Assembly (NCBI GenBank): GCA_963930775.1
Contig: OZ005695.1
Coordinates: 682,001-746,000, forward strand
Source of the DNA: Cliona cf. orientalis
Lineage: Eukaryota; Porifera; Demospongiae; Clionaida; Clionaidae
Length of the DNA stretch: 64,000 nt
Direction of reading: 5' to 3'
Position 1 is the stretch's first letter, and the number at the start of each line of letters is the position of its first letter. Under the pieces are notes generated by a model. The model saw only the letters and a list, made by a program, of their open reading frames with translations, was not told the origin of the DNA and made no database searches. A program made the position numbers and the translations under genes. This document shows, one piece after another, positions 3,856 through 45,460 of this stretch.

Positions 3856-4608
3856 CTAATTTAGGGTAAGAAGAGTCACTGGATTTGTCCAATTACCACT
3901 TCCAAACTTCCTGTTATGAAAGGGGGACACGGGGTTCTCTATCACCTCCACTTTGAAATTTGGAAACAGTTCAGTGATACGAGACACCGATACAGGAGCT
4001 GGGCCAGGTCCCTTATGATCATCACAGTCGAGAGTGGAAAAGAGCATTCGACCTCCTGGTTTGAGGAATTTGACTACCTTCTCAGCATATTGGCCATGCA
4101 AGTTTGTTGGGACGGAAATTATTCCATGGCAATCCCAGATACAGTCGAATGTACCAGTCATGTCTGGGCTTAGTGCACCAAAGAAATCTCCAACATACAC
4201 CTTTAGTTTCTTTCCATCGGTGGCCGAATAGATTTTGACTTCCCCTTCCTCCTTCACCTCGTACTCAATCTTCCCGCCAAGCACCCGATTTTCGAAAAGT
4301 TGCTCCACCGCTTTTGCTGACAGCTCACATCCGACAACTTCGCATCCTTTTTCGCACAGCCACGCTAAGTCTGGCGAGTTACCACAGAGAGTCACGAAAA
4401 TAGACAAATTGTCCTTGTCCTCGGTAAGGCGGCTTAGGTGCTTTTGAAGGTACGTATCAACCGCCGTTCCGTGGTGGCCTGGACCGCTCGCGCGCGGCTT
4501 CTCCGCGCTTTCCTGATGATCGCCTTGCCCTGGTTGTTGCTGATCATCTCCGTGGTGGTGATGAAAGCCATCCTCCCACATTTTCAGCCATTGTTCTGCA
4601 CTAGCCAT
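3856..4608 (-). CDS. TPMT-family S-adenosylmethionine methyltransferase 1 (intronless)
   Basis: 250 residues in one exon, close to the usual TPMT length of about 245. It shows the N-terminal QWLKMWEDGF segment, SAM motif I as VTLCGNSPDLAWL (about 72-84), VVGCELS (91-97), the GDFFGAL acidic loop and FLKPGGRMLFST in the late strand. Family members methylate thiopurines in vertebrates, and selenium, tellurium or thiol compounds in bacteria and plants. The substrate here is unknown. The Arg of the usual WDRG substrate-site motif is replaced: the sequence reads IWDCHG (157-162). An insertion at 16-46 holds HHHHGDDQQQ and more His. Member of a five-gene cluster, on the same strand as the next copy at 4875. 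Confidence 0.88.
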   Translation of the reverse strand: MASAEQWLKMWEDGFHHHHGDDQQQPGQGDHQESAEKPRASGPGHHGTAVDTYLQKHLSRLTEDKDNLSIFVTLCGNSPDLAWLCEKGCEVVGCELSAKAVEQLFENRVLGGKIEYEVKEEGEVKIYSATDGKKLKVYVGDFFGALSPDMTGTFDCIWDCHGIISVPTNLHGQYAEKVVKFLKPGGRMLFSTLDCDDHKGPGPAPVSVSRITELFPNFKVEVIENPVSPFHNRKFGSGNWTNPVTLLTLN

Positions 4609-4874
4609 TATCTACCAAGCGATAGCGAGGCCACTGAAAACGTAAGAGTACAGAGTCTGCCGATCAAGCCTCAGACCGTCGACCCTGGCCTGCGCACTGT
4701 GTTCTGACGACCTTTACCTAAGAATATCCTGCCCCCGCTAAATTTCATACTACTTGTACCGGTATCTGCACTTGCATTATTCACCAATAATATTATTTTT
4801 GAAACTGAGCAGAATACTGTTCAAAATAAGTAATAACAAAAGTAAAGCGTTCATTTTCTTGGGATGCTAACTAG

Positions 4875-5636
4875 CTAATTTTCTTTTTGGGTGAAGAGAG
4901 TAACAGGGTTGGTCCACAGCCCATCGAGATTCTTGTGCCATGGTGACTCCAGGTTTTCCAATTCTTCCACGTTAAAGCTGGGAAATAGTTGCACGAGATG
5001 AGCTGTTGACATATTCGGATGAAAATTCAGTGTAGCTTTTTTTTCTACAGGAATTTCACTGTCAATAGTAGAAAAGAGCATTCGACCTCCAGGCTTCAGG
5101 AACTTAATTACTTTCTCCGCATATGTGGCATATAGATTTTCTGGGACAGAAATTATTCCATGGCAATCCCAGACACAATCAAATGTACCAGTCATATCGG
5201 GGCTTAGTGAACCAAAGAAATCTCCAACATACACCTTCAGTTTCTTTCCATCAGTGGCCGAATAGATTTTGATCCCTCCTTCCTCTTTCACCTCGTAATC
5301 AATCTTCCCACCGTGAACCCGATTTTCAAACAGCTGCTCCACCGCTTTTGCAGAAATTTCACAGCCGACAACACTGTAGCCCTTTTCGCAGAGCCACACT
5401 AAATCTGGAGAGTTACCGCAGAGCGTTATGAAGATGGAGAGATTCTCTTTGCCTTCGGTAAGGCTGTCGAGATGTCTTCGGAGGTATACATCCACCTGCG
5501 ATCCATGAGGCCCAGGACCGCTCGCATGATGCGAGTCTTCATGTTGGGGAGCTTTGTGCTTTTCTGGATCCGGCCCAAGATTCAAGTGATGAAATCCATC
5601 TTCCCACGATTTCAACCACAGCTCTGGAGTTGCCAT
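4875..5636 (-). CDS. TPMT-family methyltransferase 2 (intronless)
   Basis: 253 residues in one exon, the closest relative of the copy at 3856-4608. It shares VTLCGNSPDL-like motif I (ITLCGNSPDLVWL), GCEISAKAVEQLFENRV, KIYSATDGKKLKVYVGDFFG and FLKPGGRMLFST. The substrate-site motif reads VWDCHG, again without the Arg of vertebrate and bacterial WDRG/YDRA. The N-terminal insertion is milder, with scattered His residues. A TATAAAAG box lies about 100 bases upstream. It is divergently arranged with the plus-strand copy at 5996 across 359 bases. SAM dependence is well supported; the acceptor substrate is not. Confidence 0.88.
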   Translation of the reverse strand: MATPELWLKSWEDGFHHLNLGPDPEKHKAPQHEDSHHASGPGPHGSQVDVYLRRHLDSLTEGKENLSIFITLCGNSPDLVWLCEKGYSVVGCEISAKAVEQLFENRVHGGKIDYEVKEEGGIKIYSATDGKKLKVYVGDFFGSLSPDMTGTFDCVWDCHGIISVPENLYATYAEKVIKFLKPGGRMLFSTIDSEIPVEKKATLNFHPNMSTAHLVQLFPSFNVEELENLESPWHKNLDGLWTNPVTLFTQKEN

Positions 5637-5733
5637 TATTAAATTTTTGAATTTTGCTTTTCTTCCTTTGCTTCTTGATTTGATTTCTTTTTCTTCTCTT
5701 CTTTGCTTGATATGGAGAGCTTGTGTATCCCCA

Positions 5734-5741
5734 CTTTTATA
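5734..5741 (-). promoter_or_regulatory. TATA box upstream of TPMT-family gene 2
   Basis: Reads TATAAAAG on the minus strand, about 100 bases upstream of the ATG at 5636. It lies in the 359-base spacer between the divergent TPMT-like genes. The spacer also has a TGACGTAA motif near 5886. No coding signal is seen in 5637-5995. Confidence 0.5.
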
Positions 5742-5995
5742 CTTGTCGCGGGGCCATTAGTCAGGGGGGAAGTGCTGAGTTGTACGGATCCCCCCATATA
5801 CACGCAGCAAATTTTAGGTGAATTCCTGTACGTGCTCGGGTTCGCGTCAATAGTCTAGTGCTGTTGTATTTTTAGGTCAGTGGTATGACGTAATCAAAAG
5901 TTAGTGGGCGTGGTGATAGATCGTCCACGGGGGAAGTACATCGACCCCTCAAATCACAAGCATCCCGATCGCGCGCACATCGCGTATCGATAGAC

Positions 5996-6808
5996 ATGGC
6001 TACACCTCAAGATGAAGAAAAAGTCGGCATAGCCCCACAGCAGTGGGTGAAGATGTGGGATGAATGGAATACGCCTGGAGGAGGCGAGTGTGAACACGGC
6101 GCAAGCGACGGCGATCACCAGCACCATCATGGAGACGCCGGGAAATGCGGCGAAAGTGAGCAGTGTGAAACGAGCGGCGGCCACGGATCTGAAGTCGATA
6201 AATACCTCAAGAAACACTTGAATCGTTTGACAGGAGGGAAAGCTAACTGCACGATCTTCGTGACATTCTGCGGGAACTCGCCCGATCTAGCGTGGCTGTG
6301 CGAGCAGGGACACACCGTGGTTGGCTGTGAGATATCCGAGGCGGCAGTGAAGGAACTGTTCCAGAACAAGGTGCTGGGTGGGGCAATACCCTACGAAGTC
6401 CAAGAAAAGGGTGATGTGAAGATCTATTCAGCTACGGATGGAAAGAAGCTCAAAGTGTATGTGGGTGATTTCTTTGGATCGCTGAGTCCAGAATTGACGG
6501 GAGAGCTCGACTGTGTTTGGGACTCCCACGGAATTGTTTCCATTCCCATTCCACTGCACGATCCTTTCGCCAAGAAAGTGGTGAAATTCTTAAAGCCGGG
6601 TGGTCGAATGTTCTTCTCTACTTCAGATTATGACATCACCAAGCTAAGAACGGGACCAGCGCCTTGCCCAATGTCAACATCACGTCTTGCAGAGCTTTTC
6701 CCTGATTTTGACGTAGAGCTTCTCGATAAATCGGAGGAAGATCCCTCGACAATGGATGGTCTCGACCGCTTCACCAACCCTTATAATCTTCTCACTCCCA
6801 AAAATTGA
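5996..6808 (+). CDS. TPMT-family methyltransferase 3 with His/Cys-rich insertion (intronless)
   Basis: 270 residues in one exon. It has the family core: APQQWVKMWDEW at the N-terminus, motif I as VTFCGNSPDLAWL (about 89-101), VVGCEIS, VYVGDFFGSLSPELTG, VWDSHG in place of the usual WDRG, and FLKPGGRMFFST. Between the first helix and the core it carries an extra segment (about 28-65) rich in His, Cys, Asp and Glu, including CEHGASDGDHQHHHGD. No such segment is found in human TPMT. It could bind metal ions, but that is inference. First of three same-strand copies, 127 bases before the next. The start at 5996 is supported by similarity to MAT/MAS starts in the other copies. Confidence 0.88.
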   Translation: MATPQDEEKVGIAPQQWVKMWDEWNTPGGGECEHGASDGDHQHHHGDAGKCGESEQCETSGGHGSEVDKYLKKHLNRLTGGKANCTIFVTFCGNSPDLAWLCEQGHTVVGCEISEAAVKELFQNKVLGGAIPYEVQEKGDVKIYSATDGKKLKVYVGDFFGSLSPELTGELDCVWDSHGIVSIPIPLHDPFAKKVVKFLKPGGRMFFSTSDYDITKLRTGPAPCPMSTSRLAELFPDFDVELLDKSEEDPSTMDGLDRFTNPYNLLTPKN

Positions 6809-6934
6809 TTTCTTACGCAATAATTATTTAGTTATCATGTATTCATTATCATTTTTTCGGTTAATAGGGTATCACGCAGAAATTTAATTACCGGAAACGA
6901 GTGGTAATGATCGTCATGCAGCCTGCCTTGCAAA

Positions 6935-7642
6935 ATGGCCTCTCGAGAAGATCACTTGATTGGAATGTCCCACGAGCAGTGGACGCAGGTTTGGGAGAAA
7001 GGAACCCTGGGGTGGCACAGTGACGAAGTGGATGACATTCTCCAAAAATACTTGAAGCAGCTTTGTGGAGACAAGGAGAGCATCTCGATCCTGGTCACTC
7101 TTTGCGGGAAGTCTCTGGATTTGCCCTGGCTGGCTGATCAAGGCCACAGCGTAGTCGGCTGCGAGTTAGCTGAGCTAGCTGGGAAGCAGCTATTTGAAGA
7201 AAATAACATTCCCTTCTCCCTTACAACGATTGACAATTTCAAGGTATTCTCGGCTACTGACAACAAAAAGCTCAAATTTTATGTTGGTGACTTTTTCAAA
7301 GTGAGTGCATCACTCATCGGAACATTTGATGTCATTTGGGATCACAATGCTTTTGGTGCTATAAATCCGAGTGATCGTTCACACTATATTGAGCTCCTGG
7401 GCTCTCTTCTTGTGCCTGGTGGGAAGATTCTGCTCTCAAACTTGGAGTTCGATTATGACCAAAGCAAACGAAATGTTGCCCCGGGCCCCTATTCTTTGAA
7501 CTCAAAGCAGATTAAGGAATACTTTGGGGCCCAGTTTGAAGTAGAGCTACTGGAAAGGATGGACTATAATGATTCTCTTTTCACCAAAGAGTTCGATCTA
7601 GATTGGGCATATCGACCGATACACTTGCTCACATTGCATTGA
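6935..7642 (+). CDS. TPMT-family methyltransferase 4 (intronless)
   Basis: 235 residues in one exon, without the His-rich insertion. Landmarks are EQWTQVWEKGTLGWH (about 14-28), motif I VTLCGKSLDLPWLADQGH (54-71), VVGCELAE, FYVGDFFKV, and IWDHNAFGAINPSDR, where vertebrate TPMT has WDRGALVAINPGDR. The Arg of the substrate site is therefore His-Asn here. LVPGGKILLSN marks the late strand. It is closer to classical TPMT than copies 1-3, and nearly identical to the next gene along its whole length, including both flanks. Confidence 0.9.
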   Translation: MASREDHLIGMSHEQWTQVWEKGTLGWHSDEVDDILQKYLKQLCGDKESISILVTLCGKSLDLPWLADQGHSVVGCELAELAGKQLFEENNIPFSLTTIDNFKVFSATDNKKLKFYVGDFFKVSASLIGTFDVIWDHNAFGAINPSDRSHYIELLGSLLVPGGKILLSNLEFDYDQSKRNVAPGPYSLNSKQIKEYFGAQFEVELLERMDYNDSLFTKEFDLDWAYRPIHLLTLH

Positions 7643-7886
7643 TGATTAGATCTTATAGATTAAAAATAGTAACGTATTTATTGTTATTAAATTTTAATGG
7701 AAAGTATACTTAACATTGTACATTATGGTAATGGCTTAAATTTTCACAAAAATTATCGTTAGCTAATTTTATAATCATGAGTAGTTTTTATAGTAATTAC
7801 CAAACAGAATGCAGAAATTTAATTGCCGTACCAGAAAGAGTGGTAATGATCGTCACTCAGTCAGCTGCATGTGCCTTATCATCAAA

Positions 7887-8582
7887 ATGGCCACTCAACA
7901 AGATCACTTGATTGGAGTATCCCACGAGCGGTGGACGCAGGCTTGGGAGAAGGGAACCCTGGGGTGGCACAGGGACAAAGTGGACGCCATTCTCCAAAAA
8001 TACTTGAAGCAGCTTTGTGGAGACAAAGAGAGCATCTCTATCCTGGTCACTCTTTGCGGAAAGTCTCTGGATTTGCCCTGGCTGGCTGATCAAGGCCACA
8101 GCGTAGTCGGCTGCGAGTTGGCTGAGCTAGCTGGGAAGCAGCTATTTGAAGAAAATAGCATTCCCTTCTCCCTTACGACGATTGACGATTTCAAGGTATT
8201 CTCGGCTACCGACAACAAAAAGCTCAAATTTTACGCTGGTGACTTTTTCAAAGTGAGTGCATCTCTCATCGGAACATTTGATGTCATTTGGGATCACAAT
8301 GCTTTTGGTGCTGTGAGTCCGAGCGATCGTTCACGCTATGTTGAGCTTCTGGGTTCTCTTCTCGTGCCTGGTGGGAAGATTCTGCTCTCAAACTGGGAGT
8401 ATGACCAAAGCAAACGAAATACCGCCCCCTATTCTCTGAACTCGGAGCAGATCAAGGAATACTTTGGGGCCCAGTTCGAGGTGGAGCTACTGGAAAGGAT
8501 GGACTATAACGATTCTTTTTTCACCAAAAAGTTCAATCTAGATTGGGGGTATCGTCCGATACACTTGCTCACATTACGTTGA
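7887..8582 (+). CDS. TPMT-family methyltransferase 5 (intronless)
   Basis: 231 residues from the ATG at 7887, in one exon. The frame is open upstream to an ATG at 7809. The 7887 start is preferred because MATQQDHLIG aligns with MASREDHLIG of copy 4. Motif I is VTLCGKSLDLPWLADQGH and the substrate motif is IWDHNAFGAVSPSDR. Compared with copy 4 it lacks about three residues around the YDQSKRN segment and one more near TAPYSL. The flanks match those of copy 4, so this is a recent tandem duplicate. Its 3' end faces the minus-strand membrane-protein gene ending at 8751. Confidence 0.9.
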   Translation: MATQQDHLIGVSHERWTQAWEKGTLGWHRDKVDAILQKYLKQLCGDKESISILVTLCGKSLDLPWLADQGHSVVGCELAELAGKQLFEENSIPFSLTTIDDFKVFSATDNKKLKFYAGDFFKVSASLIGTFDVIWDHNAFGAVSPSDRSRYVELLGSLLVPGGKILLSNWEYDQSKRNTAPYSLNSEQIKEYFGAQFEVELLERMDYNDSFFTKKFNLDWGYRPIHLLTLR

Positions 8583-8750: not shown

Positions 8751-10266
8751 TTATAATCGTGAATAGTCAGATAAAGATTCATAGGTGTGCTCAAGCTGTC
8801 TTCTCTCGAGAGTGGTGGTAGCAACCTCTGCTGATGGTGCGACGGTGTGTGGCTGGTACCTGGAATCATAAGCTGGGTTCTCCCTCAACCTCATAACTGC
8901 TGGGTACTTGTTCACAACTCCAACAACTACAATAATGTATAGCATCATTGCAGTTTTATTGTCATAAAGTAGTAAAAAAAAATTGTTGAACGTACCATAA
9001 TGTGCACTCTGGAATCCGTACATATCATTGTACTCCATATCTGCACCATGATCACCAGCTGTTGGTGGAATTCAAATAATGTATTAATGACCAAACAGAA
9101 TTAGCTATTTATGGTTACCTGATAGGTTTTTGGTAGATGATGGTTTAGATTTACATTTGACGTAGGCGATCAGAGCTATCACAGTGATTATCAAGACCAC
9201 GGTGACACCAACAGCGATGATGAGGCTGATTGCCAGGGGGAGTACTCCAATGGTGGCACTGGTCGACGTCGCTGGTTGCTGATCTGTGGCTGGCACCTGT
9301 GGTGGTGGGGTCGACTCCACTGCAGGGAGATTTATCATCGAGCTGGTGGAGCGGCTGGGAATTATTGAAGGGTAAATCCAATCTGCATCTGAAGGAGGGG
9401 GAGGAACAATCAAAAACGTTACGAAGTCAGCTGGCACAATAATGCAGTCCTGTATTATTATACCATAAATAGAGTATCAAAATTCTTATTATTATGTATA
9501 CATACGTACCTATCTCTGCTCTCAAAAGAGCACTGCCTGATGGAGGATTGACAGGTCTCAACTCTGAATCCTTTAAATAAGACGTGAACCCTGTCACGTC
9601 TCTCACTCTCAATAGCTGGTCAAGTTCTGAGTCTTCATCGACCACAGAGAGAGCTGGGAGTAGACCCGAGTCTGGAACATAGAAACCAATGTAGTCCCCT
9701 GCCTCCACTTCTATCACATCCGCCGGATTCGAAGGTACAAAGTCTCGACATCTGAACTCCTCTCCATCTCCGGGAACAACAATGAACCTGTTACATCCAA
9801 CGTTTTCATAGCCAGGTTCAGACTCGTTTGAATTCAATCCGGATCTTCTCCACACACAGGGCCAAATACCAGAGGATGCATTGCGAAATCCAATGATGTA
9901 GTGGCAGTATTGCCAACTGATGATGGCACCGGAGCAATTGATGGGCTTAGAGAGATCCAGATAAATCTTACTTGTTCTGATAATCACATTTCGAAACTCC
10001 TCAGTATCTGGACCAGACCAGCAAATATTTGGCGTTAATGGAGAAGGCGTGGGTGCAGGAGAGCTACTAAAAACTGAGGCATAAGACTTAGTAGTAGTTG
10101 GTGAGACGCGCCCAGAAGGTGAAACAGTTTGATTCGACAATGTGGCCACTTTTTGTCCAAATTCAATCACAAGGATGAAGAAAATCAGTAAACTTGCTCT
10201 CCCAACAATAATTTTGTGCCCCTTCAACATTCTTAGTGAGAGAAAGAGCTCCAGTTTCAGCCTCAT
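8751..10266 (-). CDS. Single-pass membrane protein with tyrosine-motif tail, family member A
   Basis: Exons: 10266-9510, 9388-9119, 9058-8996, 8926-8751; all introns phase 1; 421 residues. A hydrophobic N-terminus suggests a signal sequence, with alternative starts nearby. The ectodomain (about 75-250) has conserved cysteines and the motifs IYLDLSKPINCSG, WQYCHYIIGF, PCVWRRS, VGCNRF and GDYIGFYVPDSG. A Thr/Pro-rich stalk leads to one membrane helix (about 300-327, LPLAISLIIAVGVTVVLII) and a YVKCKSK stop-transfer. The tail carries MEYNDMY on one exon, then ENPAYDS and LEHTYESLS on the last. NPxY motifs bind PTB domains and YxN/YxxM-type sites bind SH2 domains in known receptors. I do not recognise the ectodomain family; a receptor role is inferred. 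Confidence 0.78.
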
Positions 10267-10673
10267 GATTGACGAATGCTAACTACAACTGATATTATCA
10301 CGTTCTACTGTGAATTGAGAGCGCTAGCACATGATTATCACAACATGCAGGATGGCCATATTCGATGAAAATGCTTATTATAGCAAACAATGAGATTAAG
10401 CAAAAGGTCAATATGCATTCCGCACGCCTGATAATCATTTGCTAGGAAATAAAAAAAAACCGCATGCATGCTGGGTGAGCTGCTATTCAAAATATTATGC
10501 CTAGTCCAGCCAGGATAGGAAAGATTTCTGTTGTTGCTACTGGCTTTGCAAGTTTAATCACTGGCCACAGAACATCACACATAACATGTATAATTATTAT
10601 TATAGCTAGCACATGAACATTGAAATCACAGACAAAAACAATGGGGTATGCTACACAATCATGTCCATTCGTG
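10267..10673. other. Spacer between membrane-protein genes A and B
   Basis: No gene seen. AT-rich, with the presumed promoter of gene A next to 10267 and the 3' flank of gene B next to 10673. Confidence 0.5.
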
Positions 10674-12334
10674 CTACTGAATGTTAATATTTGTAGCGTG
10701 AATGTGAAAGTTTGAAAGTGATTCATAGGTGTGCTCCAGCTGCCTCCTGGTCACAGATCTCGCCACTTCCTCTGTGGCCCCTCCTGGGGGCTGATTCCCA
10801 TGGCTCTGGGTCGGTGACATCGAATCATAGGCAGGATTTTCACTCAAACTCACAAATGTTCGCTTATTTCCCACAACAACTGTGAAATAGATATTCATAA
10901 TAATAGTATGGGAAGATACTAAATTTTGTGGATAATAATAGCATTATGTCATCATTGTGTAATGGTTGTTTATTCCATAATTATCGTACCGTGATTTGCA
11001 CTCCTGAATTTGTACATATCATTGTATTCCATGTCATTGTTGCCTGAGAGAGAACAATGGGAAGAAAACAAAGTAAGATTAATTAATGACATTACAATGC
11101 TTCTCTTGCTGAATTCACTAATAATAGCATTAATATTTATACCTGATTGAAATCTGTCATATCCCGAGAAGCATCTATGCTTGCAGTTGACATAGGCGAT
11201 CAGTGCTATCACAGTGATGGTGAGTACCACAGTGACCCCAATGGCGACGATCAGACTGACTGCCAGTGGGAGGACAGCTAGTGTGGAGGTTCTGGGTTTT
11301 GTGGTGGTTGACAGGGAAGATGGCCCGGGGGCTGTTATTGGAGGGGTGGGCGTGGGAGTAGGGGACAGGCGAGAGACTGTCACTGATGGATGCACCCAGT
11401 CTGCATCTGAAGGAAAGATATTATTACAGCAGATGTTCATTCAGCTCAATATGCATGGTATTGACTAATGATTAGTCTCATAACCCTGACCTTCACCTCT
11501 CAGTCTACATACATGTGAAATGACTGACTATGTGGACAAGCATGTGATCGTTGTTGAACTTAATTACTGACCTATTTCTGCACTCAGCAGTGCTCGTCCA
11601 GGTGTATCAGTGGTATTTCTCAATTCAGAGTCTTCAATGAAATCAGAGAATCCAGTCACATTCCTTTCCAGTTGATAATTGCCTTCGTCGTAGATAGAAG
11701 AAGAGAGACCGACAAAGAGACCAACGTCAGGAATGTAGAAACCAATGTAGTCCCCCTCCTCCACCGATATGAAATCAGATGGATTGGAGGGAACAAACTG
11801 CCTACATTTGAGTTCATTTACCTTTCCACCGGGCAAAAGTTGAATCTTATTGCAGCCAATTTTTTCGTAGCCGCTCGAGTCATTCGACCTTCTCCACACG
11901 CAAGGCCATAGCCCAGATGGTATGTCACGATATCCAATAATGTAGTGACAGAAATACCAACTGGTGATCACTCCAGTGCAGTTGACTGGTTGTGAGAGGT
12001 CAAGGTAGATGCGATCGGTAGTGGTAATAGTTCCACTTGCTCGAATAAACTCTGGCCCACTGGTGCATGTGTGTTGAATCGGCAGTGGTGAAATAGTTGG
12101 CTGAACAGCTGCAGGAGAGCTGCTCTGGCTGGTGGTGAAGGCAGCAGCATAAGAGGAAGAGAGAGAAGGAGATGGATCTATCATAGCTTGAATCGATGAA
12201 GAAGGAGACACTAGTAGACTTAAGCTTGCTCCAGGAGATACTATAATCATGAATACTGTGAGGAGCTCTCCTAGACTGGTGAGACTCGTGATCTGTGGAG
12301 ATCTCGGGACAAAAGCACTGATTTTCTTCAGCAT
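10674..12334 (-). CDS. Single-pass membrane protein with tyrosine-motif tail, family member B
   Basis: Exons: 12334-11572, 11406-11143, 11043-10990, 10879-10674; all introns phase 1; 428 residues. Same plan as member A: hydrophobic N-terminus; Ser/Pro-rich lead; ectodomain with IYLDLSQPVNCTG, WYFCHYIIGY, PCVWRRS, IGCNK, RQFVPSNPSDF and GDYIGFYIPDVG; Thr/Pro-rich stalk; one membrane helix (LPLAVSLIVAIGVTVVL...); basic stop YVNCKHR. The tail has MEYNDMYKF on the third exon, and SENPAYDS and LEHTYESLSN on the last. Exon sizes and splice phases match member A, so the two arose by tandem duplication. Ligand and partners are unknown. Confidence 0.78.
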
Positions 12335-12762
12335 GGCTGCCTTCTTGCTTGATTCAACTCAAACTCTCAGCTACTCAAAATCAAAGGTGAGTTAGCCCAT
12401 GCACTGAGCTATCTGATGATGCAGAATCAGCTGCACATAATGCCCTGACCAAGTATGGTCAATTGCATATTAAGTACTGTACTGTATGAGGCATGATGTA
12501 ACCTCATGTCCTGTACAATCTGTCATGTGCAACCATGCATGTGTTTGTCACTGTCAGTTTTTGTGTGATGTGTATATTACAGGTTTCTTTCCTGGTGGCC
12601 AAATAGCACACTTGTACAGGTTCATGCATCTGTGTACACATTAATTTTAACATGCAGGCTGGAATAATCCACCACAAAGTAACGGCAAAAATTAAATTTT
12701 ATGAGTGAGGGATTTTTTTTATAATTATGTGATCCGATCTTCATGATGACATAATTTTGTTT
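12335..12762. other. Spacer between membrane-protein genes B and C
   Basis: No gene seen. It would hold the promoter of gene B. AT-rich, with several ATGCATG-type runs and no clear repeat structure. Confidence 0.45.
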
Positions 12763-14595
12763 TCAGCTGAGCTTATGGTAGGGGTATGCATAGTGTGGCG
12801 ACAGTGATTCGTAAGTGTGCTCTAGTTGTCTCAATCCTGCCGAGCTTGCGATGCTCGTTGGCCGCTGATCACGAGTCTTGCTCTTTGGCTGCCCCGCCAT
12901 TCTGGGGCGGGTCGTAGGGTCATATGCTGGATTTTCACTGAGATCCACTGTAGTTTGCTGCCTCCCAATTATGACTGCAGGGTATAATATATGCAGGACC
13001 ATCATTAGTACACAAACTATGTGTATGCCACTTGCTTACTGTGATTTGCAGATAAAACGTTATAAGCCTGATTTTTCACTTGAACAACTGTTTGAAGCTT
13101 ACCAACCATACCTGCATAATAACAGAACACTTGTGACATAATAGTATAGTGAACAGATTTATACCGCAGCCTACCATGATTGTAGGCTTGGTTGCTAGTG
13201 CAGTCTATCAGTGTCAGCTGATTCCCTATCATGACTGTAAAATTTAATGCCTATAATTTAACTACATGCATGTATGGAACAATTGCAAATTGTACCATGG
13301 TTTTGAGAGACCATACTGTATGCTGGATTTTCCAAAAGCTTTGGTAGAAGTTCAGCAGTATCTAGAATAGAGGCAGGCACATAGCTAATACTAAATTTCA
13401 CAGTATAGACTATAATATTATACTACACACCTGAATGAAATCTCTTATACTTCAAATACTTCTTGCAGTAGACACAGATAATTAAAGTTGTCACCATGAT
13501 GACGATGAGAGCGATTGCACTGGGGACCACCACACCCACAGTCAAAAGAACAGTGGAGGCAGTCGCTACTCTGGCTGTAGTAGTCACTGGCTCTGCTGGT
13601 GTGGTAGATATTGATTCTATTGCAGCTGTTGGCCATGACTGAGCTGTTGGACTATCAATAATCCACGGTATCATAGAGCTAGCTATTGCAGAGGTACGGG
13701 GAACTGGATCTGGGGTAGGTGTCAGTGCAGAGTTGGAAGAGCTGGAAAGAGTGGCTGAAGGGAATATGTAGGAAGTATCTGAAGGAAAAAAAAATAAAAC
13801 ATCTTAGTGTATATAATCCCATGAATCTATTTCTAGTTCTCAAAACTAGGCCTTAATAATGTGATCGTGCGTCAAAAGTATTATTATACCTATTTCTGCA
13901 CTCAAGAGTGCTCTCCCAGGCTGGGTAGTGGCATTTCTCAATTCCGAGTCTTTAATGAAGGGGGCAAACCCCGTTGTAATTCTCTTTTGTTGAAAGCTGT
14001 CAGTATCATCTTCAGGAGGGGAGAATGGAAGAAAAAGACCAGAATCTGGAACATAGAAGCCAATATAGTCACCCTCCTCTACTCTTATGAGATCAAAATG
14101 ATTCAAAGGGGCAAAAGACTGGCACTGTAACCCATCTCTCTCTCCAGGGATGATACTAATTTCATTGCAACCGATTTTTTCATACCCGGCATTTGAATCG
14201 CTAGGATTTGATCTTCGCCATACACACGGCTGTAAACCTGAAGATACATTATGAAACCCCAAAACAACGTAGCAGTAATGCCATCTTGTGATCACTCCAG
14301 AGCAAGGTGCAGGTTCAGAGTTATCAAGATAGATATGATCCGTCACGGCAATCCTATTGGCATTAATGCCATTATCTGCAACATCTGGCCAGCTTGAGTT
14401 ATCAAATTGCGGCCCTGTTCTGCACAGGTTATTACGAAGTGGGGGTGGGGTTGGCACGGCCGCACTGACAGAGCTAGTGGTAGAACTGCTGGTGATAGAG
14501 GTACTGGTTTGAGTGGATGATGATGTCATTGCTACACCAACTCCAGGTCCCAAGACTAACCATAAACACCGGAGAAATAGCATTTTTAAGCTCAT
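12763..14595 (-). CDS. Single-pass membrane protein with four NxAY tail exons, family member C
   Basis: Exons: 14595-13890, 13778-13431, 13361-13296, 13234-13175, 13111-13040, 12974-12763; all introns phase 1; 487 residues. N-terminal signal-like segment (FLRCLWLVLGPGVGVAM), Ser/Thr-rich lead, ectodomain with IYLDNSEPAPCSG, WHYCYVVLGF, PCVWRRS, IGCNE and GDYIGFYVPDSG, a longer stalk, and one membrane helix (about residues 310-335) ending VYCKKYLKYKR. The tail lacks the YNDMY exon of A and B. Instead it has repeated NxAY modules: LENPAYSM, SNQAYNH, KNQAYNV and SENPAYDP, one per exon. It ends with LEHTYESLSP. The exon boundaries have good GT-AG signals, but the three tiny exons need transcript support. 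Confidence 0.7.
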
Positions 14596-15351
14596 AGTAT
14601 ATTATTATCTCTTGATTGCAATGATTAGAGGGTCCTTTCTCACTTACAATTTGCCAAACTGCATGGCTGATAAACCACAATAACAATAATATTATTAACT
14701 AAGCATGGTGACCAAATATGATTTGAGGTATGTCCCGGAAGCCCCTTTATGTCATCTTTAGCATGAACAGGATATAACAGGATGTGGTGGTCACAACCAC
14801 TGACTTTCCCGAAGTGCGTGGAGCTAAAATGATTACCTCAATCAGCATAATCCAGAATTCTCAAGCCAAAAAAAATGATTATAGTCTGGAGGATACCTAG
14901 CTAGATGATGTATGGGGAAATTAGCTACATGCTAGCAAGTTGTAGCAATACCTCATTATCTGTTCAGAAGAGCTTTCCCCATAAATAGTCTATGGGTATT
15001 TTTGAGTAATAAATATAAAATCCTACTCATCCATAGCATGACACCCGGATGCATTATTAAGTGCAATAATAATATTGTATGAGTGTAGGCAACATGAAAG
15101 CAAATGGGAACAAGCAATTGGACCCATTGTCAAGAGCATGAATAGCTGAATGTCCAAGCACTAAAAGTTTCTATCCATAATCAGACGGTACTGACTTATA
15201 TGTACAGATTTAATATTAGCTAGATTAGCTGTATGGCATACTTATGGATATGACCTGATCTGTAATGCAGTAACAATACATGCAAGTGAATTTCTATACA
15301 GCTGCTGATGATGATGATGCTAGCATTTGATGTGAAAACTTGAGAAGTGAG
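14596..15351. other. 756-base spacer between membrane-protein genes C and D
   Basis: No coding region seen. AT-rich. A 10-bp inverted pair, TATGGGGAAA at 14911-14920 and TTTCCCCATA at 14974-14983, could be a small foldback element. Confidence 0.4.
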
Positions 15352-17124
15352 TTAGCGAATAGTGTCAATCATTTCATAGGTGTGTTCCAGTCCCCTCGTT
15401 ACCTCGGCAACACCACTGTCTGCTGCTCTGTCAACCTCATCAATGCCTGTATATAGACGGCAGCAATAATTACCATGGATGGACGAGTTGTGCATTGATT
15501 GCAGACAATTATGGCATATACATAGCTCTGAGCACATCACATAATATAATATCATGCAGTTAACATACTGCTTGCTTTAGCCACATCTCCAGGTGAGTAT
15601 GCTGGATTTCTATGTAGCTCGCCCCTACACTGTGATACTCTATCCCCTATAGCAAAATTAATGCATGAGTTAATGTATTCTTTCTGGTATACTAGCTAGT
15701 AGCTACTACTAGTCCTAAATTAAATCTTACTTTTGTTGGGCCTGGGCCTGGGGGTGCTGGGCACATACAATTCATTGTACTGCATACTCTGCTCCAAGCC
15801 AACAGACATAGGCTCCACTTTGATGGTGTGAACCACTATAATATTATAAACATGTATTATTAAAATTAGTTTTATTGACATCATCAAATCAGTCATTACA
15901 TGGATCCGGATTTTAATCTTATTGTATAATACCTTGGTTTTTCCTATGACAGGAGAGAAAGAGACCACTACAGCAGCAGTGTAGCTTGTAGCAGCACGAG
16001 AACTTCATTTTACAAAGACAGCAGGCCAAGATGAACACTAATACCAGCAGGAGTAGGATGATGACAGAAGCAGTGACCAACACAGCGATAAAGATGGTGT
16101 TTCTGAATAAATCTCCTACATCTGCCGAGCAGGGGGTGGCAGTGGGATGGATGGTTGTAGGGAGTTCACTAGTTGTACTGGTATCATTTGTCACATCTAT
16201 TAAAAATATTTTCACTCATATCAGACGATAACTAATTATAAATTGCTTACTCATTATGACTCTTAATAACGAGGTCACCGAAGCATTAATCAATTCAAAT
16301 CGATCTTCTTGAATGGGATTCATTCCTATCAGGTAGCTTGCTCTATCTCCCGCTGAAGTATCTTGTTGCATTGAGGAAATATTAAGCACTCTGATCGTAT
16401 CACCCACCCCAGACTTAGGTTGACTTTGGAACAGTGATTCAGATCTCATAAAGATCGTCCTAACTGTTTCTCCACATATGAAACCCAGGAGGTCTCCGCG
16501 CTCCATATACATTGCATCTTCAGAATCAATGGAATCACATGCAGTTAGATATCCATCACTTGACCCTCTAGAACCATCAATGTTGATGTTGTAGACATTA
16601 ATGATTCGATATGATTCTTGGGTGCCCTGAGTGGTGTCTCTCCTAAGTACGACTGCAGTGATCGCGTTCTGGTCAGAATTCCGGGTACTAGATCTGGGGC
16701 TAGATTGAACCGCTAGTGCTATATAGCAAAATTCCCATCTGATGACCTCCCCTGAGCACTGTGCAGGTTGCCCGAAGTCCACGTAGAGGCGGCCCGCGTC
16801 AGCATATTGCGATGCATCGAAGATGGATGAGTTCACAATACCAACGTCGCATTGTCCTTCCCCAAGTACCTGCAATTGCAATGTATAGCATAGCGTATGG
16901 CAAAAATCATTTTTCTATAATATTATGACAACCTGCGGCGTGTTGTTGGGAAGATGTGGCTTGGGAGGAGGCGGCGGGCGCGGTGATGGGGCTGGGGGAG
17001 CTCGAGCGCGAGCTGGAATACGGCTGCTTTCATTGGATGGTGGTTTCGTCGGGGCCTCTTCAGTTGCTGCTAAAGCGGCTAGAGAAATGCTAAGAATCAC
17101 GAAAACGAGCCTTCTTCCCTCCAT
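15352..17124 (-). CDS. Single-pass membrane protein with tyrosine-motif tail, divergent family member D
   Basis: Exons: 17124-16933, 16869-16251, 16196-15933, 15835-15731, 15646-15569, 15446-15352; 450 residues. The signal peptide is clear (MEGRRLVFVILSISLAALAA), followed by a Pro/Arg-rich segment. The ectodomain keeps the family frame in divergent form: LYVDFGQPAQCSG, WEFCYIALAV, VVLRRD, and GDLLGFICG where A-C have GDYIGFY. One membrane helix follows, then an unusual cysteine-rich juxtamembrane stretch (CCLCKMKFSCCYKLHCCC). The tail has MQYNELYVPS, HRNPAYSPG and LEHTYEMID on three separate exons. The first intron is phase 0; the rest are phase 1. It shares a 178-base divergent promoter with CCZ1. 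Confidence 0.75.
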
Positions 17125-17302
17125 AGCGAGCGAGCTGCAACTCTTGGGCGGAGCTAACATCGGCGAAGCGATCGCCGCGCGCGATCGACGATAATGCAAT
17201 GGGTGTGTCATCTCTATTTATCCGAAACATAGAGAAATATTGAAAATCACGAATGAAGGGAGGAGGTCCTCGATACAACAGCCAGCACAGGTCTCTCGCA
17301 TC
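17125..17302. promoter_or_regulatory. Divergent promoter between membrane-protein gene D and CCZ1
   Basis: The start codons of the two genes are 178 bases apart on opposite strands. The stretch near 17160-17195 is GC-rich (GCGATCGCCGCGCGCGATCG), unlike the AT-rich surroundings. Confidence 0.5.
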
Positions 17303-21032
<3,730 letters not shown>

Positions 21033-21852: not shown

Positions 21853-24800
21853 TCACCACGAAAACGGTGCCCTCTCCCTGAGCAGCCTGACGCCAGAGAA
21901 CTCCCACTCGGGTCTCTCTATCCAGAGCTCCTGCCCTGTGTCCAGGCAACTCAGCACAGCACCACCCTTCCACACGACGAAGGAGGACTCAAGATCCTTG
22001 GGGGAGGGGGAGAGGGGGGGGGGGAGGGAGAGGAAGAAAGAGAGAGAGAGAAGGGGAATCATGTACTAAATTTACTAGATCTGTATTCTGTACCCCTTCT
22101 ATGTATGTATCTTGATTGGTGATCAGTGGACTAAAAATTTTCATCAGAATGTATTCATAGGTCATCGTACTATTATCATCAGTTTAATTCTGTGTTACGA
22201 TCGACCTATGGTGTGTATATTATAGGCTTTTTGCTTTTATCCTACATATCCTAGAACGTTTCAATATAACTATAACTGATTGAACTCTCACCCTTGGGTT
22301 GGCGAAGACTTCAATGTTGTTGCCCGTCCTTGGGAAGATGGTGAGGGGCTTCTGCTCCAGCCTCGACTGGAGAAGATTGGCAGCTCCAGGAAAGGCCAGG
22401 CCCCCTCCAACCATCACGATGCCACCGTAGAGCTTCTGCTTCATCTCAAGGGATGCTGTGACAGTGTTCAAGTATATATATATTTCCTACATTACTTAAC
22501 ATTATTCAACATTACCTTACAATACCTTACATTACTCAACATTACCCTACATTACCTTACAATACCTGGATTACCTTACATTACAAAACAAGTATGTTTG
22601 ATGTAACAATGATGGGATAATATGCATGAGTTATTCATAGTAATGCCCTCCAGGTATTAAGGACACTGATTGTCTGAAAAATAATTTTCATTAGATTATG
22701 AGCTACATTTTGGTCTTTGTTCCAGCTCCATAACTATTACCATTACCGAAATACGTTTGGTCTGAGTATATATAAACGTGACAATCATACATGTATTGAA
22801 GAAGCTTGGTATGTATACCATGGTATAGTCTAACATGTTCAGGACCATGGTAGCTGCTTTCATCTGCTCAAGAGCTACATTTTGGTTGTTGTTCCAGCTC
22901 CATAGCTCTTTCCGTTGCCGAGATACACTTTGGCGCGCGCCGCGGTATAGAATTAATGATATTCATAGCTTTTAATTAATTACGTCACGGTCTGTACATT
23001 CCAACGTGAAAACCATACGCGTTTTGCTACCCCCTGTCCCAGCTCAATAAATAGCATTTTCTGGGAGGTACTATCGATAACGGGGCTAGACGGTGTCAGG
23101 GGTATCCCCTCTGGCACCTGCAGCTGAAAACTGCACATGGTCCTGGGCATATATGGCTTAGGGGTCGCCCAGGTTCCTCCCTTGAATACCCCCCATCCCT
23201 GGAAGTATGGCCAATTGCGGTAATGTCCGCAGTGTCACTCCCAAACGGATCACCGAAGCTGCGGCACCTCGGCCCGGGGGGAGGGATGATTGGGACTATT
23301 TTTTTTTTTTTTTCACTTGTCGAAATTACGTATGTAGTACAGCGTGCATGCCAGCTGCAGCAGCACGAACTGACCAATCGGATCACAGTATATTATATTT
23401 GTTACAACTATAGGGTAATGTAGGTATTGTAGGTATTATAAGGTATTGTATGGTATTTTAAGGTATTGTAAGGTATTGTAGGGTAATGTAGGTCAGGAAT
23501 CTGATTGGTCAGTTGGAGGTCCACTATTTTACAGCCTCAGGCCTCTGAGTGACCAATCGGATCACAGTATTTGTTACAATAATCATAGGGTAATGTAGGT
23601 ATTGTAGGTATTGTAAGGTATTGTAAGGTATTGTAGGGTAATGTAGGTCAGGAATCTGATTGGTCAGTTGGAGGTCCACTATTTTACATTGCTTTGCTCG
23701 GGATGCTACAGCCTCGGGCCTCGAGTGACCAATCGGATCACAGTATTTGTTACAACTATAGGGTAATGTAGGTAATGTAGGTATTGTAAGGTACTGTTTT
23801 TCACAAGTAGCTTAGGTTTGATGTAACAATCATGAATTATTCACAGTATTGCCATCCTTCCCTCTTTATTATTAATTTTACTCTTGCACCACAGCCAGTT
23901 ACACTGTATCATAGCCCAAGGGGGGACCATTGGTGGACATCACGATAGCCAGTTACACTGTATCACAGCCCAAGGGGGGACCATTGGTGAACATCACGAT
24001 AGCCACTTACTGTATCGCAGCCCAAGGGGGGACCATTGGTGAACATCACGATAGCCAGTTACACTGTATCACAGCCCAAGGGGGGACCATTGGTGGACAT
24101 CACGATAGCCAGTTACACTATATCACAGCCCAAGGGGGGACCATTGGTGAACATCACGATAGCCACTTACTGTATCACAGCCCAAGGGGGGACCATTGGT
24201 GGACACTACCATGGCCACTTACTGTATTGCAGCCCAAGGGGGGACCATTGGTGGACACTACCGCAGCCACTTACTATATCACAGCCCAAGGGGGGACCAT
24301 TGGTGGACATCACGATAGCCAGTTACTGTATCACAGCCCAAGGGGGGACCATTGGTGATATCACGATAGCCAGTTACTGTATCGCAGCCCAAGGGGGGAC
24401 CATTGGTGGACATCACGATAGCCAGTTACTGTATCACAGCCCAAGGGGGGACCATTGGTGGACATCACGATATATAGCCAGTTGCTGTATCACAGCCCAA
24501 GGGGGGACCATTGGTGAACATTACCGCAGCCAGTTACTGTATCGCAGCCCAAAGGGGGGACCATTGGTGGACATTACGATAGCCAGTTAGATTTCTGTAT
24601 CACAGGGACCATTGGTACAGTGCTCGAGCTCCAGCATTGTAGCCTAGGAGACTAAATAATTATGTCACAGGATGTAAGCTATAGAGCAATGAGAGCAAGA
24701 TAAAAGAAATTTTGGTTGATTATTACTACGGAGAGACCACAGATATTGCAGAGCATAGTTAACACAGCCACAAACGATACTTGGCCATCCTCACACAACC

Positions 24801-42122: not shown

Positions 42123-43444
42123 CTAGCTTTGATACGTGATCCGGAACTTCAGGCAATCATTTTGTAGATACACTGGTTTCAGCTCACTATGAGGGATAAA
42201 TCTAGAGTCACCAAAAACCTCTCTAGCTAGTTCTCCATCTACTACTCTTCTACAACATGCATCATCTACACTACCATCGTAGATGATTGTTTTTACCCAT
42301 ACCCTCTCATCTCCATTCTGGCTCAACAACTGAACTTTGAATGTACCTCGAAGTGGCCACTTGAGCTGGTCATCGTATTCTCCTTTCATAAGCCTAAGAA
42401 ATACTGATACGTGCGTGTTAGAATCATGATTAAAACCACCAGGATAAACCATCAAACACAACTTATAGCCCATAGGGTGGGTGTAGAAGGGTGGAGACCA
42501 GATATTACGATCTTCCTTGTGCTGTTTAAAGTTGGTCATAGTCAGTTCTATAGGATACAGTGGAATTCCTACTTGGTACTGCTCAATCTTTCTTGTCAAT
42601 ATTTCAATTGCCTGCTTCAGTTGCTTGTTTTCTTCTTTAAGATTCATAACTTCCTGCTTGAGCGGTTTGAGCTGCTCATTCTCTACTGTTAAGTGCATCA
42701 ACTGCTTTTTTTGCAGGGACACATGGGCTACTAGACCTTCAGTGAGATGAATGGGTAAGTTCTTACGAGGGAGCCTCACTTTACAGCCAACACCTTTGAA
42801 TTCGCAGTCAACAACAGTCAATGGGCAGTCATTGGCGACATGGCTGTTGATTTTTCGGCGCGCCATGATTTCATCGCATTTGTTGGGGCACGGTACAGGG
42901 TAGCTACCGCACACAGGCCAGTGCTTGGCTATCACATCTTCACAAGTCGAGTTGTATTCTTTGCAGTACAGACAGGCAAAAGGCCTCTTATGACACCGGA
43001 TATTCTGATGAACTTCTATACCAGAACGCAGAATAGGCTTGGAGCAGTGAAGACACTGAACTCGTGTAAATTGGCAGCCTTCCAGCTGCTTGTCTTGAGG
43101 TGGCTTGAAATTGAGATGACTTTCAAGCCGTGTTCTCCTAGCTCTCCCACCCACTGGCAGCCTTGCTTCTTGTTGGCGCAGTGAACTTGATAGTCGTTCA
43201 GTAATCGCTTCCGCCCCTTATCCTCAAAGCAATCAAAACGGTAAGCCTTGCAACAAGGGCAGGGCTTGCCACGGTTGTTCGCCCTCACTCGCTCAATGCA
43301 CACTCGACAAAAACCGTATCCACAGCAGGTGACTTGGTAGGGCTCCTTCAGAACGAGAAGACAGACAGGACACTCACTTTGAACCCCTTTGGCCGGTTTC
43401 TCCACAAATTCGCAGTCGAATCCACCCTCTGCATGGTCAGCCAT
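42123..43444 (-). pseudogene. TRAF-like RING/zinc-finger/MATH gene with an internal frameshift
   Basis: Intronless. From the ATG at 43444 the frame encodes MADHAEGGFDCEF and a RING-like region (CPVCLLVLKEPYQVTCCGYGFC), then runs to GELGEHG. From there the homologous sequence continues in another frame: TRAF-type zinc fingers (CPNKCDEIM, CEFKGVGC), a coiled coil (EENKQLKQAIEIL), a MATH domain and the C-terminus. The switch is near 43115-43130, where alignment with the intact neighbour suggests about 5 extra bases, or a net one-base loss with a codon insertion. The rest is undamaged. Recent pseudogene, assembly error, or two separate products are all possible. Two thirds of the protein resembles the gene at 43769-45025. 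Confidence 0.75.
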
Positions 43445-43768
43445 CTTGGGAGCTACATGAGCGTGATGAGCGTGCCCACCAGGGCCACCGCGTACGGGGG
43501 GAATAAAGTCCTTTCCGGTGATCATGCACCACCCCTCTGGGATGAACATATCAGTGCTGCATCAAAACCCATATCAATCAAAATTATTAGCCTCTACAGT
43601 ATTATAGAAATGTTATAAAAATCACATTGTTATGAAATATAGCTATAATTATTATACACTATCAGGGCCCCACAAAATGTAGTATAATTATTATAAGTAG
43701 CTACCCAAAAGGAATGTCACACTCCAACACTAATTCAGTACTTAGGAAAAGAAAGCTCTACAATTCTA
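43445..43768. other. Spacer between the two TRAF-like genes
   Basis: No gene seen. AT-rich; an in-frame ATG at 43549 would extend the upstream gene by 35 residues. Confidence 0.4.
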
Positions 43769-45025: not shown

Positions 45026-45460
45026 AATTATTGCTATTCAATGTTTCTAGACAATCACAGGATTTTTAAGTTTAATGGGGCACCTGATTTTATAGACTAC
45101 TTTATAGGATCAAATTCATTGCCTATAGTTATTACTGGCATTCAAGTATGGAGCTGAGAATGTCATGTTGTTACCATTAATAACATTCACAAAAGTGACC
45201 GTGCAGATTTCAGGAGCCTAGCTATATAAGCAACTATGATTCCGGGAAAATCCAGTGGAGACATATTGACCTGGTTGCATTATGAATAGCTACACTGAAA
45301 TTGTAATTCATACTGCAGAGGCAGCAAATATCAAAATTAGGAAATTAGTGAATACTCAACATTAAACCATCATTATAATTATAGTGATCAGATGACATCA
45401 ATAGAGGAAAAGCTACCAGAGTTTTAAGAAAGAGAATAGTGCCGATTCTTAAAGAATAGT
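45026..45460. other. Spacer between the TRAF-like gene and the espin-like gene
   Basis: No gene seen; AT-rich. It should contain the TRAF-like promoter and the espin-like 3' tail. Confidence 0.45.

What the first reader, a model, noticed from the sequence alone, without database searches (positions are those of the whole stretch)
8751..17124. Four-gene tandem family of single-pass membrane proteins with modular phosphotyrosine-type tails
Four adjacent same-strand genes share a cysteine-bearing ectodomain (IYLDxSxPxxCSG, WxxCxxxxG, RR, GDYIGFY), a Thr/Pro-rich stalk, one membrane helix, and tails with three recurrent boxes: YN[DE][ML]Y, NPAY and LEHTYE. The three boxes survive in the very divergent member D, although its ectodomain has drifted, so the tail is under stronger constraint than the outside. 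This is the pattern of a diversifying surface-receptor family wired to SH2/PTB adaptors. I know of no named family with this plan. Receptor or allorecognition function is inference.
Basis: partly seen in the sequence, partly recalled or inferred. Interest (0 to 1): 0.88.

Follow-up and report, generated by a model that had tools for sequence, protein, structure and literature searches.

The report
Docking-only relatives of receptor tyrosine kinases

Summary
The four genes are real, but the reading changes. A-D (8751-17124, minus strand) have phase-1 exons, an unnamed cysteine-bearing ectodomain, a stalk, one membrane helix and tyrosine-box tails. LEHTYE and NPAY occur in 4 of 4, YN[DE][ML]Y in 3 of 4.

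The ectodomain is not private: about 90 loci in this genome encode it, 49 in one array on contig C15. Pfam, NCBIfam, PDB sequences and Foldseek give no significant match; the model is a beta-sandwich.

Array members carry either a tyrosine kinase or a kinase-less tail of N-x-A-Y boxes. Of seven genes traced in a row, three are kinase receptors and four docking-only; two kinase/docking pairs have ectodomains 98-99% identical. On an ectodomain tree, 20 kinase and 20 docking labels need 13 changes, as many as shuffled labels.

The boxes have hydrophobics at -8 and -6, not -5, as I recall for IRS-type PTB ligands; the genome has IRS-type PTB exons.

Best reading: A-D are docking-only members of a receptor-kinase superfamily, phosphorylated in trans. 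Transcripts, ligand and polymorphism are untested.

The parts
9510..10266 (-). Gene A exon 1: signal region and complete ectodomain
   Evidence: ORF
9119..9388 (-). Gene A exon 2: Thr/Pro stalk and membrane helix
8996..9058 (-). Gene A exon 3: box MEYNDMY (phase 1-1 exon)
8751..8926 (-). Gene A exon 4: boxes MRLRENPAY and LEHTYESL, stop
11572..12334 (-). Gene B exon 1: signal region and ectodomain
11143..11406 (-). Gene B exon 2: stalk and membrane helix
10990..11043 (-). Gene B exon 3: box MEYNDMY
10674..10879 (-). Gene B exon 4: boxes VSLSENPAY and LEHTYESL, stop
13890..14595 (-). Gene C exon 1: signal region and ectodomain (structure predicted, mean pLDDT 79.4)
13431..13778 (-). Gene C exon 2: stalk and membrane helix
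13296..13361 (-). Gene C exon 3: box LLENPAY
13175..13234 (-). Gene C exon 4: box SNQAY
13040..13111 (-). Gene C exon 5: box VKNQAY
12763..12974 (-). Gene C exon 6: boxes VDLSENPAY and LEHTYESL, stop
16933..17124 (-). Gene D exon 1: signal peptide and Pro-rich linker (phase 0 intron follows)
16251..16869 (-). Gene D exon 2: divergent ectodomain
   Evidence: joins the family by profile
15933..16196 (-). Gene D exon 3: stalk, membrane helix, Cys-rich juxtamembrane
15731..15835 (-). Gene D exon 4: box MQYNELY
15569..15646 (-). Gene D exon 5: box ELHRNPAY
15352..15446 (-). Gene D exon 6: box LEHTYEMI, stop

Best explanation
A-D are kinase-less, docking-only receptors of a large superfamily whose other members include receptor tyrosine kinases with the same ectodomain. 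Shown from sequence: the shared ectodomain (predicted as a beta-sandwich), the modular phase-1 exons of A-D, kinase-bearing and kinase-less forms side by side in one array, and tails with [hydrophobic]-x-[L/M]-x-x-N-x-A-Y boxes. Inferred: a ligand or neighbouring cell engages the ectodomain and clusters docking-only receptors with kinase-bearing relatives (or with a Src-type kinase). The tail tyrosines are phosphorylated in trans. N-x-A-pY boxes then recruit IRS/DOK-type PTB adaptors, YNDM in A and B could recruit a YxxM-reading SH2 such as PI3K p85, and the C-terminal pYESL/pYEMI could recruit a Src-type SH2. The kinase receptors would supply catalysis and the docking-only receptors the platform, as in ErbB2/ErbB3.
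For: Superfamily: 59 merged ectodomain loci in the branch of the window and C15 (49 within C15:6.68-7.07 Mb) and 32 in a divergent branch; profile searches join D and L022. Kinase link: tyrosine-kinase exons (glycine loop, HRDLAARN, DFG, WTAPE) follow ectodomain, TM and juxtamembrane exons on the same strand in the C14 gene (L043+L066) and in g51 (L051+L068). 15 of 91 loci have a PF07714 match downstream on the same strand with no ectodomain between (the kinase list is capped). On C15 28 of 29 listed kinase exons of this class have an ectodomain upstream within 7 kb, against 0 of 44 other kinase hits. Trace of C15:6684700-6715400, minus strand (with two kinase exons placed): docking g37, kinase g56, docking g49, docking g55, kinase g54, docking g52, kinase g51. 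Ectodomains of g51 (kinase) and g52 (docking) are 99.0% identical (dS 0.015), of g54 and g55 97.9% (dS 0.033). On the ectodomain tree 20 kinase and 20 docking labels need 13 changes, at least 10 forced by starred branches, shuffled mean 13.6-13.7. Docking boxes: 47 N-x-A-Y in 15 further tails against 0.93 in shuffles; LIVMF at -8 in 33 of 46 and at -6 in 33 of 46, against 9 at -7 and 6 at -5; after collapsing near-copies 16 of 24 and 14 of 24. IRS-type PTB (PF02174): 17 exon matches in the genome, three in one 924-aa frame on C13. IRS-1 PTB bound to an NPApY peptide is a solved structure (PMC3507883, passage).
Against: No transcript joins any of these exons; gene models are hand-made or by proximity. 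Within tandem arrays proximity is weak evidence: 27 of 95 class kinases also have an ectodomain downstream on the same strand and 8 one on the other strand, and 60 of the 95 have no ectodomain found upstream. The traced stretch has gaps that were not fetched. A scan for four kinase motifs found none in the window (motifs split by introns would be missed), so no kinase partner of A-D was found adjacent; the nearest class kinases found on the contig are at C7:240-485 kb, about 200 kb away. Shared ancestry of ectodomains does not show that partners co-assemble. The -6/-8 rule for IRS-type PTB and -5 for Shc/Dab is recalled; the one passage I saw gives influence at -9, -8 and -7 for IRS1/2 (PMC5962649). 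37 of the 46 boxes lack the Pro of NPXY at -2, two of the seven in the window among them. No binding was tested.
Confidence: 0.6

Rival explanations
1. The tails are endocytic sorting signals. Unphosphorylated NPxY/NxxY boxes recruit clathrin or SNX17-type adaptors, and A-D are uptake receptors rather than signalling receptors.
For: NPxY and NxxY serve sorting in LDL-receptor-like proteins (recalled). [quoted passage not shown]
Against: The hydrophobic residue at -5 expected for Dab/ARH/SNX17-type readers (recalled) is not enriched: 6 of 46, background 19%. The boxes occur beside other tyrosine boxes (YNDMY, LEHTYE; YEYI/YDYI in 8 of 12 C15 tails seen), and kinase-bearing relatives share the ectodomain.
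Confidence: 0.15
2. A-D and the other kinase-less members are decoys or inhibitors that compete with the kinase receptors for ligand or for adaptors, like inhibitory members of paired-receptor families.
For: Kinase and docking members share almost identical ectodomains (99.0% and 97.9%) and are interspersed in one array. YESL is a YxxL sequence.
Against: No ITIM: position -2 before YESL is His, not I/V/L/S (sequence; ITIM rule recalled). A pure decoy would not need conserved docking boxes. Tail omega is 0.18-0.39 in 7 pairs.
Confidence: 0.2
3. The array is an allorecognition or immune recognition locus. The ectodomains are polymorphic between individuals, and kinase and docking forms read self or non-self.
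For: Large young tandem array (dS from 0.015), ectodomain omega up to 0.86 and above the tail in 6 of 7 docking pairs, frequent exchange of inner parts.
Against: No omega above 1 in the pairs listed. One genome only, so no polymorphism data. A-D themselves are old duplicates with saturated or nearly saturated dS. Tandem expansion also fits environmental or symbiont sensing.
Confidence: 0.3
4. The kinase exons belong to separate neighbouring genes, so the ectodomain family has no kinase members and the apparent switching is an artefact of gene order.
For: Tandem arrays put every exon type near every other: 27 of 95 class kinases have an ectodomain downstream too. No transcripts.
Against: In the traced stretch three genes read ectodomain, TM, juxtamembrane, kinase on one strand, and in the other four a TM plus N-x-A-Y tail stands in that place before the next ectodomain. 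The C14 copy lies outside the array and shows the same order. 0 of 44 kinase hits of other classes have an ectodomain upstream.
Confidence: 0.07

Closest known systems
Receptor tyrosine kinases, ErbB2/ErbB3 as a division-of-labour analogue (recalled)
   Same: A kinase-bearing receptor and a relative with little or no catalysis share an ectodomain type; the latter carries docking tyrosines.
   Different: ErbB3 keeps a kinase fold; A-D have none. Here kinase and docking tail seem to have been exchanged many times, and the ectodomain is of another, unnamed family.
IL-4 receptor alpha / insulin receptor I4R-type NPXY docking site read by IRS PTB domains (PMC5962649 and PMC3507883, passages)
   Same: N-P-A-Y core with hydrophobic residues upstream; the NPApY peptide bound to the IRS-1 PTB domain is a solved structure.
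   Different: Up to six N-x-A-Y boxes per tail (g55), most with another residue than P at -2 (37 of 46); binding not tested.
Paired activating/inhibitory immune receptors (KIR, Siglec and the like; recalled)
   Same: Near-identical ectodomains on different signalling tails in one young tandem array.
   Different: One form here has its own tyrosine kinase domain; no ITIM or ITAM was seen in A-D.
TNF/C1q-like jelly-roll domains
   Same: The predicted ectodomain is an all-beta sandwich; RANKL, CD40L and TNF dominate the 50 Foldseek matches shown.
   Different: No match at E<=0.001, TM-scores about 0.3; the second-ranked match is a cyanophage capsid protein (TM 0.42); no sequence match.

Membership tests
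Receptor tyrosine kinase | Ectodomain, single membrane helix | tested here: met
   Gene models of A-D; TM hydrophobicity in relatives
Receptor tyrosine kinase | Intracellular tyrosine kinase domain in A-D | tested here: not met
   Tails of A-D end in a stop soon after the LEHTYE box; no kinase motif in a six-frame motif scan of the window. Hence A-D are relatives of RTKs, not RTKs.
Receptor tyrosine kinase | Intracellular tyrosine kinase domain in ectodomain relatives | tested here: met
   PF07714 at E 4.6e-18, 1.3e-15, 7.5e-26 in three exons of the C14 copy; g51 kinase exons. Joined to the ectodomain by exon order only, not by transcripts.
IRS/DOK-type PTB ligand | N-x-x-Y core | tested here: met
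   7 N-x-A-Y in four tails against 0.12 in shuffles
IRS/DOK-type PTB ligand | Hydrophobic at -6 and -8 rather than -5 | tested here: met
   33/46 and 33/46 against 6/46; window boxes 5/7, 5/7 against 2/7. The rule itself is recalled.
IRS/DOK-type PTB ligand | Phosphorylation-dependent binding | not testable with these tools
   No binding data
Shc/Dab/SNX17-type NPxY ligand | Hydrophobic or aromatic at -5 (recalled) | tested here: not met
   LIVMF 6/46 overall, 2/7 in the window
ITAM/ITIM receptors | ITAM: YxxL/I x6-12 YxxL/I; ITIM: [IVLS]xYxx[LVI] (recalled) | tested here: inconclusive
   Read by eye from the A-D sequences, no script: H at -2 of YESL/YEMI argues against an ITIM; no correctly spaced pair was noticed.
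TNF/C1q-like jelly-roll | Significant fold match | tested here: inconclusive
   Model mean pLDDT 79.4; 0 Foldseek matches at E<=0.001; best RANKL 5.9e-3 with TM about 0.3
Any Pfam/NCBIfam ectodomain family | Profile match | tested here: not met
   Pfam: none at E<=0.001 in A-D or in any of 23 aligned ectodomains; NCBIfam best 0.052
Allorecognition locus | Ectodomain polymorphism that predicts fusion or rejection | not testable with these tools
   One genome, no population data

The most novel reading that the evidence does not exclude
A recognition repertoire in an early-branching animal in which one unnamed beta-sandwich ectodomain is repeatedly exchanged, through phase-1 exons, between a tyrosine kinase cassette and a multi-site PTB docking cassette. 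Receptors with the same specificity would then come as catalytic and docking-only partners. This would be a paired-receptor system with split kinase and scaffold, possibly for allo- or symbiont recognition, and A-D would be an old docking-only branch of it.
Probability: 0.4. Interest if true: 0.87.

Novelty: new variant of a known kind. Interest (0 to 1): 0.74.

Why it matters
How early animals without adaptive immunity built large recognition repertoires, and how tyrosine-kinase signalling diversified near the origin of animals, are open questions. A genome in which one recognition domain seems to have been swapped some ten times or more between a kinase and a docking tail gives a concrete testable system: which adaptor reads the tail, whether matched kinase and docking receptors co-assemble, and whether the array is polymorphic. 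The ectodomain, with about 90 loci here and no Pfam match, also deserves a family of its own.

Tried and rejected
Rejected: 'a family of four' (searches show about 90 ectodomain loci). 'Three boxes in all four' (C lacks YN[DE][ML]Y). 'Tail more constrained than ectodomain' for A-C. dN/dS on A-D (synonymous sites saturated or nearly so). A bacterial or archaeal origin of the ectodomain: one genome-contig scan with C, 40 pattern matches, none confirmed. Pfam near-misses (NleE 0.003 in one member, Zn_ribbon_PADR1 in three, PRIMA1 in A and B) are below the cut-offs. The g55 tail as query finds its C15 neighbours, a broken piece on C18 and four weak rows (E 0.2-0.9), so docking tails are not found by whole-tail similarity; the box pattern is the common feature. 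Literature: six library searches on the subject listed no paper that by title or abstract describes this family; only open-licence papers are held, and the Amphimedon genome paper is not held. Papers seen: passages of PMC8662651, PMC3507883 and PMC5962649; search listings for the rest.

Limits of the counts: the genome search scores only the best candidates (119 of 2511, 150 of 482). In one search I used the ectodomain rows (rows matching only stalk, TM or tail, and some weak rows, left out), the 34 strongest of 68 rows, and the kinase rows on the relevant contigs plus a sample of the others. Some of the 91 merged loci may be fragments of one gene, and 34 weaker rows are not in them. In one search I used 139 of the 150 rows (11 fragments, mostly second halves of split exons, left out), sorted by eye into 95 and 44, and the ectodomain rows with a few fragments left out. 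The trace of C15:6684700-6715400 lacks 6693168-6695077, 6704945-6705104 and 6708669-6709798, which were not fetched; class kinase hits fall in the first and third. Tree labels were assigned by me by the nearest downstream module before the next ectodomain; 6 of 46 rows were left unlabelled. The tree is of the quick kind with long branches (D among them), whose starred branches are less sure, and its place for D is unsure. The 15 tails from outside the window were chosen because they contain at least one N-x-A-Y (16 of 39 TM+tail ORFs, one of them a partial C tail), so the enrichment in that set is partly by selection; the -6/-8 pattern was not selected for. One search prints only the 40 closest pairs, one of which is the same gene cut twice.


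Full report
What is there. The minus strand at 8751-17124 encodes four complete genes. Exon 1 of A, B and C (exons 1-2 of D) gives the signal region and the whole ectodomain, the next exon gives stalk and membrane helix, and the tail is built of small exons in phase 1 with one or two tyrosine boxes each. All introns are phase 1 except the first of D. A and B have MEYNDMY, ENPAY and LEHTYESL; D has MQYNELY, HRNPAY and LEHTYEMI; C has no YN[DE][ML]Y and instead runs NPAY, NQAY, NQAY, NPAY before LEHTYESL. The claim of a tail more constrained than the ectodomain fails for A-C: tails are 31-44% identical, ectodomains 50-56%.

The ectodomain is a large family. Searching the window's own genome (216.8 Mb, 149 contigs; the window is C7:682001-746000) with C gave 46 matches, many on contig C15. 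A profile grown from A-C joined D, 17 C15 loci and, by the second round, L022 from C4. A C15 member as query gave 58 matches, and the divergent C4 member gave 68. After merging and dropping weak rows there are 59 loci in the branch of the window and C15, 49 of them within C15:6.68-7.07 Mb, and 32 in the divergent branch. In an alignment of 23, C6, C46, G48, W53, C56, R75, Y86, C106, G123, D124 and G127 are nearly invariant. No Pfam family reaches E 0.001 in A-D or in the 23; NCBIfam best is 0.052; PDB sequences best are 0.43 and 0.87. AlphaFold2 on the alignment gives a beta-sandwich for C, mean pLDDT 79.4, pTM 0.79. Foldseek finds nothing at E<=0.001; among the 50 matches shown RANKL, CD40L and TNF dominate at E 0.006-0.065 and TM about 0.3, with a cyanophage capsid protein second, a lead and no more.

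Relatives include receptor tyrosine kinases. PF07714 matches lie in the C15 array and behind the isolated C14 copy (a capped list). The C14 gene reads ectodomain, TM, juxtamembrane tyrosines, then glycine-loop, HRDLAARN, DFG and WTAPE exons on one strand; Pfam confirms three of its kinase exons. Fifteen of 91 ectodomain loci have such a kinase downstream with no ectodomain between. With a kinase exon as query, 28 of the 29 class kinases listed on C15 have an ectodomain upstream within 7 kb, 35 of 95 in the genome, and 0 of 44 hits of other kinase classes. As control, 27 of the 95 have an ectodomain downstream and 8 one on the other strand, as expected in tandem arrays. The remaining 60 of 95, mostly on C5, C7, C11 and C16, may have ectodomains too divergent to be found, or others.

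Kinase and docking-only forms share ectodomains. I traced C15:6684700-6715400 (three gaps not fetched, two of them holding class kinase hits). In order of transcription it reads: docking gene g37 (three N-x-A-Y), kinase g56, docking g49 (three), docking g55 (six), kinase g54, docking g52 (five), kinase g51. g52 still seems to hold a broken copy of the kinase-type TM exon upstream of its docking-type TM exon. The ectodomains of g51 and g52 are 99.0% identical (dS 0.015) and those of g54 and g55 97.9% (dS 0.033), though their inner parts differ; g37 and g49 share tails (dS 0.33) with far older ectodomains (dS 1.76). On a tree of 46 ectodomains, 20 kinase and 20 docking labels need 13 changes, at least 10 forced by starred branches, and shuffled labels need 13.6-13.7 on average: inner type says nothing about ectodomain ancestry. 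A-D fall together (support 83), all docking-only; the place of the long branch D is unsure. On contig C7, class kinases lie at 240-485 kb and divergent ectodomains at 239-629 kb and further on, with A-D at 691-699 kb, so the window sits near the edge of a receptor region.

In the four window tails N-x-A-Y occurs 7 times against 0.12 in shuffles, and in 15 other tails 47 against 0.93 (these 15 were picked for having at least one). Over 46 distinct boxes, hydrophobic residues (LIVMF, background 19%) stand at -8 in 33 and at -6 in 33, but at -7 in 9 and -5 in 6. After collapsing near-copies the counts at -8, -6, -7 and -5 are 16, 14, 5 and 4 of 24, and in the seven window boxes 5, 5, 1 and 2. Alternation at -6 and -8 is what I recall for IRS-type PTB domains; Shc, Dab and SNX17 want -5 (recalled). 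The IRS-1 PTB structure holds an NPApY peptide (PMC3507883, passage), and the I4R motif review names positions -9 to -7 (PMC5962649, passage). The genome has 17 IRS-type PTB exon matches, three of them in one 924-aa frame on C13. Of 12 C15 docking tails seen, 8 have YEYI or YDYI at or near the end, and A-D have YESL or YEMI, which would suit a Src-type SH2 (recalled).

Selection. In the array, ectodomain omega is 0.29-0.86 in the closest pairs listed. It exceeds tail omega in 6 of 7 docking pairs (for example 0.78 against 0.18; the exception is 0.22 against 0.23), and exceeds juxtamembrane omega in 2 of 3 kinase-gene pairs (exception 0.39 against 0.48). This is fast evolution of the outside, not proof of positive selection.

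Verdict. Family membership, the kinase link and the repeated exchange rest on sequence and gene order and are strong, short of transcripts. Docking by IRS-type PTB adaptors after phosphorylation in trans is a specific inference with moderate support. Recognition of self, kin or symbionts is open.

Noticed in passing
G000:C17:2316562-2324877 (minus): One open frame of 2925 aa holds ten consecutive PF07714 kinase matches; C2:7894805-7897624 (a 1326-aa frame) has three, and C6:5771139-5774296 has four in a row in separate frames. Tandem polykinase proteins of this size look unusual.
   Followed up: no
G000:C13:173090-174343 (minus): A single 924-aa frame with three tandem IRS-type PTB domain matches, a candidate multivalent reader of the N-x-A-Y arrays; a further run of IRS-PTB exons on C9:5667220-5698799.
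   Followed up: no
L065 (G000:C7:1590001-1594500): Divergent-branch gene with ectodomain, TM and tail in one 492-aa frame; the tail carries ten x-A-Y repeats (NQAY, NEAY, CVAY, NAAY and others) and YDYP near its end.
   Followed up: partly
window 3859-8579: Five thiopurine-methyltransferase-like frames in tandem (two minus, three plus), directly beside the receptor cluster (named from memory of the family; no profile was run).
   Followed up: no
window about 17200-17760: Plus-strand gene that begins within a few hundred bases of the start of D, divergently oriented, and resembles CCZ1 (from memory).
   Followed up: no
window 42126-45037: Two adjacent minus-strand genes with RING/TRAF zinc fingers and TRAF-like ends (from memory), probably duplicates.
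   Followed up: no
window 23915-24587: Open frames made of a repeated unit reading SQPKGGPLVDITIAS, a coding-length minisatellite.
   Followed up: no
L052 (G000:C15:6689613-6693167): Docking gene g52 seems to keep a truncated copy of the kinase-type membrane exon (GDLGPGAIVVGFMIILKSKLIL, then stop) before its docking-type membrane exon: a possible trace of the exchange.
   Followed up: partly
L026 and L061 (C15): Very long Thr-rich stalks, some 300 residues of T/E/P repeats, much longer than in other members.
   Followed up: no
G000:C18:4936572-4937436: A broken, stop-ridden piece of a g55-like docking tail far from the array.
   Followed up: no
L047 (G000:C15, strand + 554-766): A reverse-transcriptase-like fragment upstream of the g47 ectodomain; a retroelement relic inside the array, seen only in an ORF listing.
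   Followed up: no
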